A stretch of 64,000 nt of DNA from Stigmatella ashevillena. Its GTDB lineage: Bacteria; Myxococcota; Myxococcia; Myxococcales; Myxococcaceae. The stretch spans positions 8,550,425 to 8,614,424 of the forward strand of contig NZ_JAQNDM010000002.1 of assembly GCF_028368975.1 (NCBI RefSeq), in the 5' to 3' direction. A program made the position numbers and the translations under genes. The notes beneath the pieces are model-generated. The model had not been told where the DNA came from, searched no databases, and worked only from the letters and a program-made list of their open reading frames with translations. This document shows positions 47,434 through 53,620 of this stretch, one piece after another (within the stretch, counting starts at the first letter, position 1; each line of letters starts with the position of its first letter).

Positions 47434-48324
47434 TTAGCGGTTCTCTTCCCGCTTGAGCCGGAGCCGGATGTCCGTGAAGTGGTACGGCGCCCAGGGGCCG
47501 GTGAACTGGAACGTCAGCATCGCGTGGTTCGCGGCGAGCGACTTGACCCTCGCATCGAAGGCGGCTTCCTGATCCCGGGCCACGAGGAAGGCCGCGTTGA
47601 GCAGCATCCGCTCTCCTACGGGGCTCACCACCCGGGTCGCCGCGGCCACGGGCCTCAGGGTGTCCACGATGGTGCTCCCTTGCTGCCGGGCCCGCTCCCG
47701 GAGCGCTTCTTCCATTTTGCGCTCATACTCCAGACGGGCCGGAGTGCCGGGGGGTTGTCCCGAGAGGCGTCCCAACTCCGCGTCCGTCGACTCCAGCTCC
47801 CGGGCAACCCTGTCCTGATCCCAGAGCACCTTGAGCCCCAGCTCGACATGCCCCTCCAGCCGGTCCAGCACACCGGTAAAGGCGTCGTGGGCCGAGCGCA
47901 GCAGCTCCGTGACCTCGTCAGGGCCCGGAAAGGTGAGGCCAAACGCCGTGGGCAGCAAGGTGTGGCCGTGGATCACCGCATCCTGGACACGGTGGTGGGC
48001 CAGCAGGTTGTCACGCGTGGGATCCGGTACGCCCCGGGGGCCTTTCGACACCACCGCTCCCAGTCCCCGGTACAGGATCGTCCACACCGCGGAGGGCGGC
48101 ACCCCCAGTCCAATGGGGCCAAAGTCCAGCGCTTCCTCGGTGCGCAGCACGCCATAGACGTACAGCCCGTGCGCCTGGGAGAGGCCTTCGGGCGCGGCGG
48201 CGGCGGCGCGAAGGGGCTCGGGCTCGGCGACGGGCACAGCGGTGTCCGCAGCCGCGCGCGGACGGCGCTTCGCCGGGCGTTTCGCGGCTCGAGAACTGCC
48301 TTTCCGGACGGGGGGCCGGGCCAT
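47434..48324 (-). CDS. GvpL/GvpF-family gas vesicle protein
   Basis: A 296-residue protein with a basic Arg/Ala/Lys-rich N-terminal extension of about 50 residues, then the GvpL/GvpF domain: GLYVYGVLRTEEALDFGP, AVVSKGPRGVPDP, LLAHHRVQDAVIHGHTLLP, GHVELGLKVLWD, and the closing FTGPWAPYHFTDIRL, very typical of the family. GvpF and GvpL are accessory or minor shell components of gas vesicles. The start is three bases after the upstream response-regulator stop, so it is the last gene of a tight operon that begins with a GvpA-like gene. No other gvp gene is in the window, so buoyancy is not implied. Confidence 0.88.
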   Translation of the reverse strand: MARPPVRKGSSRAAKRPAKRRPRAAADTAVPVAEPEPLRAAAAAPEGLSQAHGLYVYGVLRTEEALDFGPIGLGVPPSAVWTILYRGLGAVVSKGPRGVPDPTRDNLLAHHRVQDAVIHGHTLLPTAFGLTFPGPDEVTELLRSAHDAFTGVLDRLEGHVELGLKVLWDQDRVARELESTDAELGRLSGQPPGTPARLEYERKMEEALRERARQQGSTIVDTLRPVAAATRVVSPVGERMLLNAAFLVARDQEAAFDARVKSLAANHAMLTFQFTGPWAPYHFTDIRLRLKREENR

Positions 48325-48327
48325 GGC

Positions 48328-48741
48328 TCACCGTGCCGGAAGTGTTTTGCGCACTGCCAGCATCCGCCTTACTTCTTCCACCAGCGCATCGGGTAGGCAC
48401 GGCTTGATGACGAAGGAGTCGCAGCCCGCATCCTGCGCTCCGCCGGGTTGGCCCGTCAGGGCGTGGCCGGTCAGGGCCACCACGGGGATGGTCTTCGTGC
48501 GCTCATCGTTCTTGAGCCGGCGCGTGGCTTCCCATCCGTCGATGACAGGCAGAGACAGGTCCATCAGGATGACGTCTGGCAAGAGTTCGAAGGCCTTGTC
48601 CAGCGCCTCGGCACCGTTCTTCGCTTCGGCCACCCGGAAGCCCGAGAACTCCAGGTACTCGGCGTACATCTCGCGTGCATCCTGGTAGTCGTCGACGACC
48701 AGGACGAGCGGCTTGGGTCCTTCCTCAGGGGGATTACTCAT
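48328..48741 (-). CDS. CheY-like single-domain response regulator
   Basis: A 137-residue receiver domain alone. Acidic pocket VVDDYQ (Asp17, Asp18), phosphoacceptor Asp61 in LMDLSLPVIDGWEATRR, conserved Thr in VVALTGHA, and the Lys of SFVIKP. No DNA-binding output is present, so it acts by protein contact or as a phosphate relay. Its ATG overlaps the histidine kinase stop by four bases (ATGA), and the GvpF/L gene follows after three bases. The kinase next to it is the obvious partner. Confidence 0.92.
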   Translation of the reverse strand: MSNPPEEGPKPLVLVVDDYQDAREMYAEYLEFSGFRVAEAKNGAEALDKAFELLPDVILMDLSLPVIDGWEATRRLKNDERTKTIPVVALTGHALTGQPGGAQDAGCDSFVIKPCLPDALVEEVRRMLAVRKTLPAR

Positions 48742-50423
48742 GTGCGCCTCGTGCGCCGCGGTAGATGCAGTGTGAAGGTGGAGCCCTGACCCAGCGCGCT
48801 TTGAACGGTGATGCGTCCTCCCAGCATGGCCGCCAGACGCCGACAGATGGACAGGCCCAGGCCCGTGCCGCCATAGGCACGGGTGGGGGAGCTGTCCACT
48901 TGCTGGAAGTCATCGAAAATCTTCTCCTGGTGCTCCTGCGCGATGCCGATGCCGGTGTCCTTCACGGAGATGAGCACCAGCGACACGGAGGACTGGTACT
49001 CCGCGTTCACCTGGACGGAACCTTCATGGGTGAATTTGAGTGAGTTGGACAGCAGGTTGAGGACGATCTGCTTCACCTTCTGCCGGTCGCTGTGGACCTC
49101 GGGGAGCCGGGCGGGCAGGGCGGTGTCCACCACGAGCTTCGTGCGCGCGATGATGGGGTCTAGCTCCGCCATCACCTCCTGGATGAGCTCCGGCAACTCG
49201 AAGTCCGACAGGTTGAGCGGCATCCGCCCCGCCTCGATGCGGGTGATGTCGAGGATCTCGTTGATGACCTGGAGCAGGTGCCGCCCGTTGGAGTCGATGC
49301 GCTGAAGGTTGCGCTTCTGCGTGGGCATCATCTCCCCGGACACACCCTGGAGCAGCATGTTGGTATAGCCGAGGATGGCGTTGAGCGGGGTTCGGAACTC
49401 GTGGGACATGTTGGCCAGGAACTGGGACTTGGCCGCGCTGGCCTGCTCGAGCTGGAGCGCCTGCCGGCGCAGCTTCTCGTTCTGCTCGGCCAGCTCCGCG
49501 GTGGCCGTGTGGACCTTGGCCTCCAGCTCACTGGAGGCCGTCTTGAGCTGCTCCAGCAGCCGGGCCTTCTCGCGCGTCTCGGTCCGGTCGTGCAGCAGGG
49601 TGACGATGGAGGCCGTCTCTCCCTGGTCCGTGAGCACCTTGCTGGCCACGGCCTCCATGGGCAGGGGCGTGCCCGTGGCAGGCTCGAGCAGGTGCAACTC
49701 TCCGCGCCAGCGCCGTGCGCCGCCTTGCGAGAGCAGGTGGGAGAGGAACGAGGAGAAGTGCGCGTCGTTGGTGCGCACGCGCCGCCGGGAGGCCTCGCCG
49801 TTGTCGGCCGGGGTGGAGAAGAGCCGCTCGGCCGGATCATTCATCAGCACGATGCTCCCAGAAGGGTCCGTGAGGATGATGGGGTTGGCCACCGAGTCGA
49901 GGATGAGATCCAAGCGCAGCCGCTCCGAGCGGGCCTCCTGCTCCGAGGCGCGCAGCCGCCGGTAGCTCTCGCCGAGGGCCTGGGTGGCGCGTCCCAGGTC
50001 CGTCACATTGCGCAGCACGCTCACCACGCCCAGCAGGCCATTCGCTTCGCGCATCGGGGTGGTGACCAGCTCGAAGAGCAGGTCCGTGCCCTGGAGCGGA
50101 TCCACCAGGGACAGCTCCCGCCGGCGCACGCTGGAGGCGCCCCCCGTGGCGGCACTGGCGAGCGCGGTGGCGAAGAGGTGCTGGTTGAGTTCCACCGCCC
50201 GGCGGTGCCCCTCGCTGGCCCCCTCGCCCGCGACCAGCAGCTCGCGCGCCCGCGCGTTGGCGATGTGCAGGTGGCCCTCGGCGTTGGTGAACAGCAGCGG
50301 ATCGGTGACCGCGTCCAGCAGGCGCAGCAAGATGAGCTGCTCCTGAGAGGGAGCCGGGGAGCCAGGGCTCGACGGCTCCCCGGTCTGGGCGTTGGAAGGC
50401 AGCAGGGGCGCGGTGGAGGACAA
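48738..50423 (-). CDS. Soluble PAS-domain sensor histidine kinase
   Basis: A 561-residue kinase from TTG 50423, with GGAG about nine bases upstream inside the end of the preceding gene. Two PAS domains (about residues 33-140 and 165-275; LFTNAEGHLHIANARARELL and IILTDPSGSIVLMNDPAERL) are followed by a long coiled coil (LEAKVHTATAELAEQNEKLR). HisKA carries its His in LANMSHEFRTPLNAI. HATPase_c has LLSNSLKFTHEG, KDTGIGIAQEH and GGTGLGLSI. No membrane helix is present, so it senses an internal signal. It is coupled to the receiver protein downstream and to the GvpA-like gene upstream. Confidence 0.93.
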   Translation of the reverse strand: MSSTAPLLPSNAQTGEPSSPGSPAPSQEQLILLRLLDAVTDPLLFTNAEGHLHIANARARELLVAGEGASEGHRRAVELNQHLFATALASAATGGASSVRRRELSLVDPLQGTDLLFELVTTPMREANGLLGVVSVLRNVTDLGRATQALGESYRRLRASEQEARSERLRLDLILDSVANPIILTDPSGSIVLMNDPAERLFSTPADNGEASRRRVRTNDAHFSSFLSHLLSQGGARRWRGELHLLEPATGTPLPMEAVASKVLTDQGETASIVTLLHDRTETREKARLLEQLKTASSELEAKVHTATAELAEQNEKLRRQALQLEQASAAKSQFLANMSHEFRTPLNAILGYTNMLLQGVSGEMMPTQKRNLQRIDSNGRHLLQVINEILDITRIEAGRMPLNLSDFELPELIQEVMAELDPIIARTKLVVDTALPARLPEVHSDRQKVKQIVLNLLSNSLKFTHEGSVQVNAEYQSSVSLVLISVKDTGIGIAQEHQEKIFDDFQQVDSSPTRAYGGTGLGLSICRRLAAMLGGRITVQSALGQGSTFTLHLPRRTRRT

Positions 50424-50427
50424 GACG

Positions 50428-50637
50428 CTACGCTCCGGTCCCCGTCAGTCCTGGGGGGGGCGCGGGCGCCTCCAGGTGGGTGTCTACGGCCTCGACGGTG
50501 ATGCGGAGCTTCTCCGTGCCGGGCAGCGGGCTCGCCAGCGTCGCGTTGGGACGCACATCGAACCGGATGCCCTGATCCAGGGCACGGTCAAGGATGTCGA
50601 CGAGGCTGGTGATTCCGGGGTTTCGTGCGACGGGCAT
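50428..50637 (-). CDS. GvpA/GvpJ-like small gas vesicle protein, divergent
   Basis: A 69-residue protein starting at ATG 50637 behind AGGAG at seven bases. SLVDILDRALDQGIRFDV lines up with the conserved first helix of GvpA/GvpJ (SL-x-E/D-x-LDR-x-LDKGI pattern), and EKLRITVEAVDTHLE lines up with the second-helix end (EARVVVASVDTYLK-like). The intervening strand hairpin, normally hydrophobic, reads NATLASPLPG and is divergent. It is the first gene of a four-gene operon that ends in GvpF/L, which strengthens the call. It is too divergent to assume that it forms a normal gas vesicle shell. The C-terminus is a short Pro/Gly tail. Confidence 0.6.
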   Translation of the reverse strand: MPVARNPGITSLVDILDRALDQGIRFDVRPNATLASPLPGTEKLRITVEAVDTHLEAPAPPPGLTGTGA

Positions 50638-50854: not shown

Positions 50855-52402
50855 ATGAAGGAAGAGCGAATCCACAAGTCTCTTTGGACAACGACGGCGC
50901 ATGGCAGACGTTTCCCCGTGTTGTCAGGCGACATGACGGTGGACGTGGTCATCGTGGGTGGGGGCATCACCGGGCTCACCACGGCCCTGTTGCTCAAGCG
51001 GGCCGGCAAGAAGGTGGCGGTGCTGGAGATGAACCGGTTGCTGTCCGGCCAGACCGGGCAGACCACCGCGCACCTCACGGAGCTGCTCGACACCCCCTAT
51101 TCCACGCTGCGCTCGGACTTTGGCGAGAGGGGGGCGCGCATGGCCGCGGCCTCCAGCCGGGCCGCCATCGAGCAGATCGCCACGCTCGTCCAGGAGCTGG
51201 GCATTGACTGTGGCTTCCAGCGGGTGCCCCTGTACCGCTATGCGGAAACCCCCCAGCAACTGCACGAGCTGGAGAAGGAGGTTGCTGCGGCGCAGGAAGC
51301 GGGGCTGATGGTCCGCTTCACCCATGGCACGCCGCTGCCCTTTCCCGTGAAGGGCGCGCTGCGGCTGGAGGACCAGGCGCAGTTCCACCCCCGCGAGTAC
51401 CTGCTGGCGATCGCCGAGCGAATCGAGGGGGATGGCTGCTTCATCTTCGAGGAGACGCGCGTGGTGGAGGTGCAGGACGGCACGCCCTGCCGCGTCGTCA
51501 CCGACCGGGGAACCGTCATCGCGGGGGACGTGGTGGAGGCGACGAACAGCCCCCTCAACCGCGTCTTCATGCACACGAAGATCTACCCGTACCGAACCTA
51601 CGCGGTGGCCGGTCCGTTGGAGGGCCCCCTGGAGCCGGGCCTCTATTACGACAGCCAGGAGCCCTACCACTACATCCGGACGCAGCGCGTCCAGGGCGTG
51701 AACTACCTCATCGTGGGCGGTGAGGATCACAAGGTGGGCTCGGAGACGGACACGGAGAAGTCTTTCGCGGCCCTGGAGGCTTACGCACTGCGTCGATTCC
51801 CCATCACGGCGCTCACCCACCGGTGGTCTGGCCAGGTCATCGAACCGGCGGATGGTCTGGCGTTCATCGGCCGCAACAGCGCCTCGATGCACACCTATGT
51901 GGCCACGGGACTGTCAGGAACCGGAATGACGTGGGGAACGCTGGCGGGGATGATCCTCTCGGATCTCATCCTCGGACGGCAGAACCCGTATGCCTCGCTG
52001 TATGACGCCACGCGCGTGAAGGTCCGGGCAGGGGCCAAGGACTTCATCCAGGAGAATGCGGATGTGGCCTTCCGGTTCGTCGCCGATCGCCTCTCCCGGC
52101 CCTGCGGACGCTCGCTGGCGGAGGTTGCTCCGGGCGAGGGGAAGATCCTCGAGGTGGCCGGGCAGAAGGTCGCCGTCTACCGGGAAGAGAGCGGCGCCTG
52201 CCATGCCGTGTCCCCGGTGTGCACGCACCTGGGCTGCCACGTGAACTGGAACACTGCGGAGCGCTCCTGGGACTGCCCCTGCCATGGCGCCCGCTTCAGC
52301 CCCACCGGCAAGGTCCTCAATGGTCCGGCCGTGAAGGACCTCGCATCCAAGAAGCTTCCACCCGAGGCGAATCAAGCACCATCTGACGGAGAGACACCAT
52401 GA
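50855..52402 (+). CDS. FAD-dependent oxidoreductase with C-terminal Rieske domain
   Basis: A 515-residue protein. Residues 30-400 form a DAO-type flavin domain (VDVVIVGGGITGLTTALLLK for FAD binding, GLSGTGMTWGTLAGMILSDL near its end). Residues 425-500 form a Rieske domain with CTHLGC and CPCHGARF, giving the two Cys and two His that bind a [2Fe-2S] cluster. The combination is a known fusion (sometimes called YhfW-like) whose natural substrate is not established; electron flow from an amine or other donor through FAD to the cluster is likely. The stop overlaps the next gene (ATGA), which encodes a hemerythrin. Confidence 0.92.
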   Translation: MKEERIHKSLWTTTAHGRRFPVLSGDMTVDVVIVGGGITGLTTALLLKRAGKKVAVLEMNRLLSGQTGQTTAHLTELLDTPYSTLRSDFGERGARMAAASSRAAIEQIATLVQELGIDCGFQRVPLYRYAETPQQLHELEKEVAAAQEAGLMVRFTHGTPLPFPVKGALRLEDQAQFHPREYLLAIAERIEGDGCFIFEETRVVEVQDGTPCRVVTDRGTVIAGDVVEATNSPLNRVFMHTKIYPYRTYAVAGPLEGPLEPGLYYDSQEPYHYIRTQRVQGVNYLIVGGEDHKVGSETDTEKSFAALEAYALRRFPITALTHRWSGQVIEPADGLAFIGRNSASMHTYVATGLSGTGMTWGTLAGMILSDLILGRQNPYASLYDATRVKVRAGAKDFIQENADVAFRFVADRLSRPCGRSLAEVAPGEGKILEVAGQKVAVYREESGACHAVSPVCTHLGCHVNWNTAERSWDCPCHGARFSPTGKVLNGPAVKDLASKKLPPEANQAPSDGETP

Positions 52403-52887
52403 ACGCCATTGATCTGCTCGAGGACCAGCACGAAGAGGTGAAGAAGCTGTTCAAGCAGTACGAGAACCTCAAGGACGGCGCGGATGCGGAGCGCCGGAAG
52501 ATCTTCGAGAAAATCGCCGACCGGTTGGCGGCCCATGCCAGCATCGAGGAGCTGTACTTCTATCCTTCGGTGAAGGCGGCGCGCACGGAGGACAAGCTGT
52601 ACGAGGCGGTGGAGGAGCACCTGGCCGCCAAGCGCATCATCGCGGACCTGCTCCAGATGGAGCCGGACGATGAGTCCTTCGACGCGAAGATGAAGGTGCT
52701 CCGGGAGAGCATCGACCACCACGTGGAGGAAGAAGAGGAGGATCTCTTTCCGAAGGTGCGCAAGCTCTTGAACGATGAGCAGCTCCTGGTGCTCGGCATC
52801 CAGATGAAGGAAGAGTTCGACGAGATGATGGACGCCGAGCCGCGCTACGAAGTGCCGATGCAGACGGACGCCGCAGCGCCCCTCTGA
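52399..52887 (+). CDS. Hemerythrin HHE domain protein
   Basis: A 162-residue four-helix protein that probably binds a di-iron centre. Metal-ligand candidates: His in LLEDQHEEVKKLF, HASIEELYFYP, VEEHLAAKRI, and the late DHHVEEEEEDLFP. Single-domain hemerythrins bind oxygen or nitric oxide or store iron; the direct link to the FAD-Rieske oxidoreductase, through a four-base overlap, suggests a shared redox or oxygen-related task. No membrane segment is present, so the protein should be cytoplasmic. Confidence 0.92.
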   Translation: MNAIDLLEDQHEEVKKLFKQYENLKDGADAERRKIFEKIADRLAAHASIEELYFYPSVKAARTEDKLYEAVEEHLAAKRIIADLLQMEPDDESFDAKMKVLRESIDHHVEEEEEDLFPKVRKLLNDEQLLVLGIQMKEEFDEMMDAEPRYEVPMQTDAAAPL

Positions 52888-52930
52888 ACTTGCGTGCAGT
52901 CCTCGCGCGGGGGTGGCAGCATGGTTCTCC

Positions 52931-53620
52931 ATGCCCGCTTCCCCGCGCGCCGCTGTTTCCTTGCCGGACGCCTTCACTGTTTCCGCTCGCCGGGCACTGG
53001 CCCGCGCGGATCCCTCGCTGGCCGCCCTGATGCGAAAGGTGGGGCCCTTCCGGCTCCAGCTCAAACCGCTGCTCAGCCCTTTCGCGGCGCTGGCTGAGTC
53101 CATCATCTATCAGCAGCTTCACGGCCGTGCGGCGGCCACCATCTTCGCCCGGCTGTGCGAGCGGGTAGGGGGTGGCACGGGCCTCACGCCCGAGGCCCTC
53201 CTGGCCACGCCGGTCGATGCGCTGAGGGCCGCGGGGGTGTCGGGTGCCAAGGCCGCGGCGCTGAAGGATCTGGCCGAGAAGACCCGGGCGGGAACGGTGC
53301 CCTCCCTGGCCCAGGTGCGGCGTCTGAGCGATGAGGCGCTGATCGAGCGGTTCACCGAAGTGCGCGGCATCGGTCAATGGACGGTGGAGATGCTGCTCAT
53401 CTTCCAGTTGGGCCGCCCGGACGTCCTGCCCGTGGACGATTACGCCATCCGCAAGGGCTTCATGTTCCTTCAGGGCTTGAAGGAGTCTCCTCGGCCCCGG
53501 GAGGTGCTGGCGTACGGAGAGCGGTGGCGTCCCTGGCGCAGCGTGGCGAGTTGGTACCTGTGGCGCTCGCTGGAACTGCCGGAGATCCAGGAAGCGTCGC
53601 GCCGCGCCAAGAAGGACTGA
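52931..53620 (+). CDS. DNA-3-methyladenine glycosylase II family protein (AlkA-like)
   Basis: A 229-residue base-excision repair glycosylase from ATG 52931; a GTG at 52913 is possible. It has ESIIYQQLHGRAAATIFARL, the helix-hairpin-helix FTEVRGIGQWTVEMLLIF, and the catalytic-Asp region RPDVLPVDDYAIRKG. It excises alkylated purines such as 3-methyladenine. It is shorter than E. coli AlkA and lacks its N-terminal domain, as is usual in many bacteria. It lies 43 bases after the hemerythrin gene on the same strand. Confidence 0.9.
   Translation: MPASPRAAVSLPDAFTVSARRALARADPSLAALMRKVGPFRLQLKPLLSPFAALAESIIYQQLHGRAAATIFARLCERVGGGTGLTPEALLATPVDALRAAGVSGAKAAALKDLAEKTRAGTVPSLAQVRRLSDEALIERFTEVRGIGQWTVEMLLIFQLGRPDVLPVDDYAIRKGFMFLQGLKESPRPREVLAYGERWRPWRSVASWYLWRSLELPEIQEASRRAKKD

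What the first reader, a model, noticed from the sequence alone, without database searches (positions are those of the whole stretch)
47434..50637. Gas-vesicle-like proteins wrapped around a two-component system in one tight operon
Four minus-strand genes are packed with gaps of 4, -4 and 3 bases: a GvpA/GvpJ-like 69-residue protein, a soluble double-PAS histidine kinase, a CheY-like receiver, and a GvpF/L protein with a basic N-terminal extension. Gas vesicle shell or accessory genes normally sit with gvpN, gvpK, gvpG and other gvp genes, not interleaved with signalling proteins. The GvpA-like protein keeps the first-helix LDRALDQGI pattern but has a changed strand region, so it may form a different assembly. 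A shell or scaffold that responds to, or serves as platform for, the kinase-receiver pair would be a new use of gas vesicle folds. The gene calls are from sequence; the joint function is inference.
Basis: partly seen in the sequence, partly recalled or inferred. Interest (0 to 1): 0.8.

Follow-up and report, generated by a model that had tools for sequence, protein, structure and literature searches.

The report
Gas-vesicle remnant in signalling operon
In predatory soil bacteria, a kinase-and-receiver signalling pair that sits inside complete gas-vesicle gene clusters of related bacteria has been kept together with only two gas-vesicle genes, one of them reduced to the short helix its chaperone is known to grip, which suggests that gas-vesicle parts were recycled for signalling.

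Summary
The four genes are real and tightly packed (gaps 4, -4, 3). GvpF/L is certain. The 69-aa protein is a degenerate GvpA: below Pfam's cut-off, but orthologous by position. The order gvpA-like > histidine kinase > receiver > gvpF was called intact in 45 of 147 genomes of the class; 36 of these 45 have no GvpK. Complete gvp clusters of other Myxococcota carry the same kinase-receiver pair between a normal gvpA and gvpF, and five Gemmatimonadota clusters have a related kinase directly after gvpA. So this is most likely a gas-vesicle cluster reduced around its own kinase pair. In the reduced GvpA only residues 2-26 are strongly constrained (dN/dS 0.17 against 0.60 for the rest); the hydrophobic wall hairpin is gone. 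In Halobacterium helix alpha1 alone binds GvpF. Best reading: a signalling unit in which a GvpA-derived docking peptide and GvpF work with a soluble PAS kinase and a single-domain receiver. A new shell is unlikely. Twelve relatives lack both gvp genes beside the pair, and their kinase lacks both PAS domains. The mechanism is inference; I found no experiment.

The parts
50428..50637 (-). gvpA-like gene, 69 aa (degenerate GvpA)
   Evidence: ORF; PF00741 16.2 bits, below cut-off; NCBIfam GvpA E 1.6e-4; PDB 8gbs E 0.0047 and 7r1c E 0.021 over residues 3-66 and 3-56; in the place of the normal HK-adjacent GvpA of full clusters
50557..50637 (-). residues 1-27: N-terminus plus helix alpha1, proposed GvpF-docking segment
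   Evidence: best conserved stretch in 46 units; omega of residues 2-26 is 0.17, bootstrap 0.09-0.26; corresponds to Halobacterium fragment A1-22, which binds GvpF
50433..50436 (-). GGAG in the last gvpA-like codons, likely Shine-Dalgarno of the kinase
   Evidence: GGAG in all 46 units; stop, 4 nt, HK start in 45 of 46, 5 nt in L066
48738..50423 (-). soluble PAS-PAS histidine kinase, 561 aa; PAS about 50318-49998 and 49916-49587, HisKA about 49433-49227, HATPase_c about 49088-48753
   Evidence: Pfam; 58 relatives in the class score 594-1122 bits, partial or shortened ones 320-555; best paralogues in four genomes about 192 bits
48328..48741 (-). single-domain receiver (CheY/DivK-like), overlaps the HK by 4 nt
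   Evidence: PF00072 84.5 bits; omega 0.08
47434..48324 (-). gvpF (GvpF/L) with basic N-terminal tail (about residues 1-52); PF06386 about 48168-47473
   Evidence: PF06386 213 bits; PDB 6l5d E 9.5e-15, 4qsg E 2.2e-10; basic tail also in several full-cluster GvpF proteins
50855..52402 (+). divergent neighbour: FAD-dependent oxidoreductase with Rieske domain (context, not part of the unit)
   Evidence: PF01266 + PF00355; found in 31 of 47 unit stretches, some of which are cut by contig ends, and beside the HK-receiver pair in 12 of 12 loci without gvp genes
52399..52887 (+). hemerythrin-like protein (context)
   Evidence: PF01814; homologue (53-56%) in full-cluster stretches L089, L095, L097, L102, all of one genus

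Best explanation
The operon is a gas-vesicle gene cluster reduced to a signalling unit. SHOWN: full clusters of other Myxococcota have gvpJ-gvpA-HK-receiver-gvpF followed by further gvp genes up to gvpK; the unit keeps only gvpA, HK, receiver and gvpF; its GvpA has lost the hydrophobic hairpin but keeps helix alpha1 under selection about as strong as on the kinase; GvpF stays a full-length, selected protein in the 45 intact units. INFERRED: the reduction itself (from position and sequence), and the mechanism. The GvpA remnant is a GvpF-docking peptide. The GvpA(alpha1)-GvpF complex is an input to, or the effector of, the soluble PAS kinase and its single-domain receiver, which has no DNA-binding domain and so should act by protein contact. 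In the ancestral clusters the same parts would let the kinase report on, or control, the chaperoned GvpA pool before shell assembly.
For: Four-gene order called intact in 45 genomes. HK-receiver lies between gvpA and gvpF in full clusters L089, L091, L094, L099, L100, L101, L114 and, on broken contigs, in G002, G004 and G006. Kinase orthology is clean: 58 relatives at 594-1122 bits against paralogues at about 192 or less. omega: gvpA 2-26 0.17 (0.09-0.26), gvpA 27-end 0.60 (0.50-0.72), gvpF domain 0.33 (0.28-0.39), HK kinase core 0.14, receiver 0.08; 22 disjoint species pairs. Alpha1 residues D14, R15 and G20 are kept in 46/46 and D18 in 45/46. Fragment A1-22 of Halobacterium GvpA binds GvpF (rf 41); fragments 20-47 and 44-76 do not (PMC7688916 passages). 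In the PMC11445434 system GvpF binding to the shell protein shows once GvpG is removed (passages), and the window's genome has no GvpG over the cut-off. Absence of gvpA and gvpF goes with absence of both PAS domains: by blastp no PAS region in 12/12 loci without gvp genes, PAS region in 49/49 unit loci examined. Neighbour genes shared with some full clusters.
Against: Other residues that affected GvpF binding in Halobacterium are mostly not kept: K19 is R or Q in 46/46, R28 is kept in 14/46, E40 in 10/46. The alpha1 data come from a haloarchaeon. One genome (G106) has a frameshifted gvpF with gvpA-like, HK and receiver present. The joint absence of PAS and gvp genes is only one or two events on the tree. 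Shared neighbours were found in 6 of 12 full-cluster stretches searched, five of them in one genus. No direct evidence that kinase or receiver touches GvpF or GvpA. Alpha1 could be kept for some other contact.
Confidence: 0.5

Rival explanations
1. Slow decay: only HK and receiver are selected; gvpA-like and gvpF are passengers left by their place on either side of the kinase pair and are being lost.
For: GvpA tail omega 0.60 and gvpF domain 0.33 against 0.08 for the receiver and 0.14 for the kinase core; 12 genomes have HK-receiver with no gvp gene beside it; gvpF is frameshifted in G106.
Against: Alpha1 omega 0.17 over 22 species pairs is not neutral; 45 genomes keep all four frames open although gvpF has drifted to 39-51% identity with the window's outside the window's own group; the 12 genomes without the gvp genes also lack both PAS domains, as if these depended on each other.
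Confidence: 0.22
2. The gvpA-like ORF is mainly a leader: its ribosomes deliver translation to the kinase, whose Shine-Dalgarno lies in its last codons.
For: GGAG, stop, 4 nt, start is kept in 45 of 46, which also explains the conserved end of the protein.
Against: A leader needs no protein-level conservation of its first 26 residues; synonymous change there is near normal (pS 0.129 against 0.15 in HK). Kinase orthologues exist without any gvpA beside them.
Confidence: 0.1
3. One reading: the 69-aa protein forms a new shell or scaffold that serves the kinase-receiver pair.
For: GvpA homology; a short RIVV-like core persists in most units.
Against: Hairpin identity 0.26; GRAVY -0.14 (range -0.85 to 0.26) with no overlap with 65 normal GvpA proteins (1.06 to 1.51); indels within the hairpin; no GvpK in 36 of 45 unit genomes.
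Confidence: 0.1
4. The unit regulates or supplies a complete gvp cluster elsewhere in the genome.
For: 9 of 45 unit genomes have GvpK, i.e. a separate gvp cluster.
Against: 36 of 45 have no GvpK. In the four of the nine separate clusters that I fetched (L083, L086, L087, L088) no relative of this HK or receiver was found.
Confidence: 0.05

Closest known systems
GvpA / PF00741 gas-vesicle wall protein
   Same: N-terminus and helix alpha1, length, position before HK-receiver-gvpF; PDB 8gbs and 7r1c align over residues 3-66 and 3-56
   Different: Hydrophobic beta-hairpin and alpha2 lost; below Pfam's cut-off
GvpF/L (PF06386; PDB 4qsg, 6l5d)
   Same: Full-length domain, 213 bits
   Different: In the window's genome it stands without the other accessory Gvp proteins tested; basic N-terminal tail
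Serratia ATCC 39006 gvp locus with gvrA, gvrB, gvrC
   Same: Regulators encoded inside a gvp locus (PMC4982088 passages)
   Different: GvrA is a sigma54 NtrC-like regulator; here HK plus single-domain receiver lie between gvpA and gvpF, and the rest of the cluster is absent
gvp clusters with ArsA-like ATPase (PMC2963123 passages)
   Same: An ArsA-like ATPase gene of about 630 aa is also in the full Myxococcota cluster L089
   Different: The passages I saw do not mention a kinase; the unit has no ATPase, GvpG or GvpK gene beside it

Membership tests
GvpA (PF00741) | Score over the curated cut-off (25 bits) | tested here: not met
   16.2 bits; NCBIfam 21.8 bits with cut-off 112
GvpA (PF00741) | Helix alpha1 pattern LDRxLDxG with essential charges | tested here: met
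   D14, R15, G20 in 46/46, D18 in 45/46; but K19 is replaced by R (36) or Q (10)
GvpA (PF00741) | Hydrophobic beta-hairpin that faces the gas | tested here: not met
   mean GRAVY -0.14 against 1.31 and 1.36; identity 0.26
[quoted passage not shown]
   AlphaFold2 gives only helix 12-21, mean pLDDT 57, but the control, a normal GvpA, also fails to give the known hairpin
GvpA (PF00741) | Orthology to shell GvpA | tested here: met
   Same position upstream of HK-receiver-gvpF; same MPVER...SLxDVLDRxLD start in most units; no tree of GvpA itself was made
GvpF/L (PF06386) | Full-length match over cut-off | tested here: met
   213.2 bits, profile 1-244 of 245; 4qsg, 6l5d
Gas-vesicle gene cluster | GvpK, GvpG, GvpN or further GvpA/J in the genome | tested here: not met
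   Own genome: none over cut-off
Gas-vesicle gene cluster | Makes gas vesicles | not testable with these tools
   needs electron microscopy or flotation
Two-component system | HisKA + HATPase_c kinase with adjacent receiver | tested here: met
   start/stop overlap of 4 nt
Serratia-type gvr regulation | NtrC-like sigma54 activator in the operon | tested here: not met
   receiver is 137 aa with only PF00072 over its cut-off

The most novel reading that the evidence does not exclude
A gas-vesicle shell protein has been turned into a signalling peptide: GvpF bound to the GvpA-derived helix is the ligand or the phospho-controlled effector of a PAS kinase/receiver pair. In the full clusters of at least two phyla the same kinase is a previously unrecognised assembly checkpoint that reads the state of chaperoned GvpA.
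Probability: 0.35. Interest if true: 0.85.

Novelty: new variant of a known kind. Interest (0 to 1): 0.63.

Why it matters
If true, Gvp proteins have a life outside gas vesicles, and GvpF can be studied apart from the ten or so proteins that usually obscure it. It gives a natural two-protein test of the claim that alpha1 alone is the GvpF-binding site, a set of natural losses (12 genomes) to compare, and a candidate kinase that couples signalling to gas-vesicle assembly in bacteria where the role of gvp genes is unclear.

Tried and rejected
AlphaFold2 on the 69-aa protein gave helix 12-21 and no hairpin, but the control with a normal Chloroflexi GvpA gave a long helix instead of the known hairpin, so both models were set aside and no fold search was run.

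The extra N-terminal domain of Myxococcus/Corallococcus kinases (about 145 aa) looked like a GAF domain. Pfam found nothing for three examples, a profile against PDB sequences gave only one match at E 0.91, and hhalign against the Chloroflexi GAF region gave a probability of 0.35%. I call it an unassigned N-terminal domain; my notes and script labels that say 'GAF' or 'GAF-only' mean this domain.

Overlapping-gene or RNA constraint as the cause of alpha1 conservation: rejected because synonymous change there is near that of the kinase. Weak gvpA-like hits in L225 and L228 (28-29 bits) overlap the kinase ORF and match only the variable tail; rejected. Orthology of the Acidobacteria (L122, 195 bits) and Chloroflexi (L126, 239 bits) kinases is not claimed: the scores are near those of ordinary paralogues. 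The first genome-contig scan with the single protein found nothing. An apparent 786-aa frame from gvpA into the kinase in L093 (a 61%-complete genome) is read as a frame error, since the kinase is split over two frames.

Rows left out of counts: the gvpA alignment and omega rest on 46 sequences (45 loci plus the window). The 45 complete units leave out L049 (contig end), L061 (G102, its other three genes are on another contig, L236), L073 and L077 (contig ends before gvpA), L045 (G068, kinase frame broken) and L110 (G106, gvpF frameshifted). G065 and G067 were not fetched as long stretches. Start codons of gvpF are uncertain in several units.
Full report
WHAT IS THERE. Four minus-strand genes lie at 50428-50637, 48738-50423, 48328-48741 and 47434-48324, with gaps of 4, -4 and 3. 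Pfam gives two PAS domains, HisKA and HATPase_c for the second, a lone receiver for the third and full-length GvpL_GvpF (213 bits) for the fourth. The 69-aa protein reaches only 16.2 bits with PF00741, below the cut-off of 25. It does align along residues 7-55 and 2-55 with two NCBIfam GvpA models (E 1.6e-4 and 1.8e-4, below their cut-offs) and along residues 3-66 and 3-56 with the solved GvpA chains 8gbs and 7r1c (E 0.0047 and 0.021). The own genome (10.95 Mb, 2 contigs) has no other PF00741 match, no other PF06386 match over the cut-off, no GvpK match and no GvpG or GvpN match over the cut-off.

CONSERVATION OF THE UNIT. Of the 147 genomes of the class that are held, 73 have GvpF/L, 27 GvpK, 31 a PF00741 match over the cut-off and 75 a relative of this kinase at E <= 1e-80. 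I fetched 60 stretches. All four genes in order, all frames open, were called in 45 genomes including the own; contig ends make this a lower bound. Of these 45, 36 have no GvpK, and 34 have neither GvpK nor a PF00741 match over the cut-off. In 45 of 46 gvpA-like genes the kinase starts 4 nt after the gvpA stop (5 nt in one), with GGAG inside the last gvpA codons in all 46. HK and receiver overlap by 4 nt in 44 of 45 unit rows; the exception, L045, has a broken kinase frame. Named holders from the second scan, which kept the best 80 of 552 relatives: Hyalangium versicolor, Citreicoccus inhibens, Corallococcus sicarius, Pyxidicoccus caerfyrddinensis, and, with contigs that begin after gvpA, Myxococcus vastator and M. 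xanthus AM003.

WHERE IT COMES FROM. In other Myxococcota the same HK and receiver lie inside complete gvp clusters, between a normal gvpA and a gvpF: gvpJ-like, gvpA, HK, receiver, gvpF, gvpG, ATPase, gvpF/L, gvpF/L, gvpK (L089, L094, L099, L100 and L114, a Labilithrix MAG). L101 lacks a found gvpG and ATPase; L091 runs to a contig end; in G002, G004 and G006 the cluster is broken over contigs. In five Gemmatimonadota loci (L116, L120, L121, L129, L130) and one of an unidentified bacterium (L119), a related kinase (456-498 bits to the L089 kinase) directly follows gvpA; no receiver was found there. An Acidobacteria locus (L122) and a Chloroflexi locus (L126) also have a kinase after gvpA, but their scores (195 and 239) are too low for me to claim orthology. 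In the 60 remaining loci of that scan (L133-L192: Bacillota, Actinomycetota and others) the best kinase match is 149 bits. The window kinase is cleanly orthologous within the class: 58 relatives score 594-1122 bits, the best paralogues in four genomes about 192. Neighbours give modest support for reduction in place: the ADH gene upstream of the unit is also beside the full cluster L091 (74% identity); a hemerythrin gene lies near clusters L089, L095, L097 and L102 and a piece of the DNA-glycosylase gene near L098, all five of one genus; six of the 12 full-cluster stretches searched show no shared neighbour.

WHAT HAPPENED TO GVPA. Between units, the 14 residues of alpha1 are 0.83 identical on average and the hairpin 0.26 (anchored on LDxG, without gaps, so indels lower the second value). 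In 18 normal HK-adjacent GvpA proteins the values are 0.94 and 0.92, in 47 other shell GvpA proteins 0.95 and 0.80. Hairpin hydropathy is -0.14 (range -0.85 to 0.26) in units, 1.31 (1.28-1.40) and 1.36 (1.06-1.51) in the other two sets, with no overlap. Over 22 disjoint species pairs, omega (Nei-Gojobori, pair bootstrap, codon bias not modelled) is 0.17 (0.09-0.26) for residues 2-26 and 0.60 (0.50-0.72) for the rest; gvpF domain 0.33, HK PAS region 0.23, kinase core 0.14, receiver 0.08. So the first 26 residues are selected as a protein about as strongly as the kinase, while the wall part is only weakly constrained. Structure prediction did not help: the 69-aa protein gives only helix 12-21, but the control with a normal GvpA also fails to give the known hairpin.

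WHY DOCKING. In Halobacterium, GvpF gives a higher signal with GvpA fragment 1-22 (alpha1) than with whole GvpA, and almost none with fragments 20-47 and 44-76. Single changes at R15, K19, G20, D24, A27, R28, G33 and E40 weaken the signal (PMC7688916, passages; PMC9372576, passages). A second group, in another gvp system, postulates GvpF as the primary partner and likely chaperone of the shell protein; there the contact shows only when GvpG, which outcompetes GvpF, is removed (PMC11445434, passages). In units R15 and G20 are kept in 46/46, D24 as D in 35 and E in 8; K19 became R or Q; R28 is kept in 14 and E40 in 10. So the minimal site is kept and the wall-side contacts are mostly gone. Together with the retention of exactly one other gvp gene, gvpF, this is my case for a docking peptide. 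It is inference.

NATURAL LOSSES. Twelve genomes (G042, G043-G048, G073-G076, G121) have the kinase-receiver pair beside the FAD/Rieske oxidoreductase gene, as in many units, but no gvpA-like and no gvpF beside it, and the PAS region is missing from their kinase while the N-terminal domain is present (12 of 12). Three of them (G043, G045, G048) have a separate gvp cluster with GvpK elsewhere. All 49 unit loci examined keep the PAS region; seven of the 49 (L033-L035, L048, L079, L080, L082), like the window, show no N-terminal domain. On the kinase tree the 12 are one supported group of 11 plus G042 on a long branch, so one or two events. This suggests, but does not prove, that the PAS domains serve the gvp side. 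Against the reading: G106 has a frameshifted gvpF with the other three genes present.

WHAT IS KNOWN. Regulators inside a gvp locus are known in Serratia (gvrA-C; GvrA is a sigma54 NtrC-like regulator; PMC4982088, passages), and ArsA-like ATPases in gvp clusters are known (PMC2963123, passages). I found no paper on this kinase, this unit or a GvpA reduced to alpha1 in the searches (open-access library only; I read listings, and passages of five papers).

VERDICT. The evolutionary reading (a gas-vesicle cluster reduced around its own kinase-receiver pair) I hold at about 0.9. The docking-signalling mechanism I hold at 0.5, slow decay at 0.22, a new shell at 0.1.

Noticed in passing
L116, L119, L120, L121, L129, L130: gvp clusters of Gemmatimonadota (L119: unidentified bacterium) carry a PAS-PAS histidine kinase directly after gvpA; I found no description of it in my paper searches.
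   Followed up: partly
L223-L234: Twelve genomes have the HK-receiver pair without gvp genes beside it and without the PAS region, next to the FAD/Rieske oxidoreductase gene.
   Followed up: yes
window 48169-48324; L089, L091, L094, L100, L114, L122: GvpF of this cluster type often has a lysine/arginine-rich N-terminal tail, present in Stigmatella and many Myxococcus units and apparently absent in several others (start codons uncertain).
   Followed up: partly
HK orthologues in Myxococcus/Corallococcus, e.g. L062, L059, and full clusters L089, L091: About 145-aa N-terminal domain with no Pfam match, absent from the window's kinase and its seven nearest relatives.
   Followed up: partly
L110:6463-6870: gvpF of G106 is frameshifted and shortened while gvpA-like, HK and receiver are present.
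   Followed up: partly
window 50855-53620: FAD/Rieske oxidoreductase, hemerythrin and HhH-GPD DNA glycosylase genes run divergently from the unit here and in many relatives; a redox link to the PAS kinase is possible.
   Followed up: no
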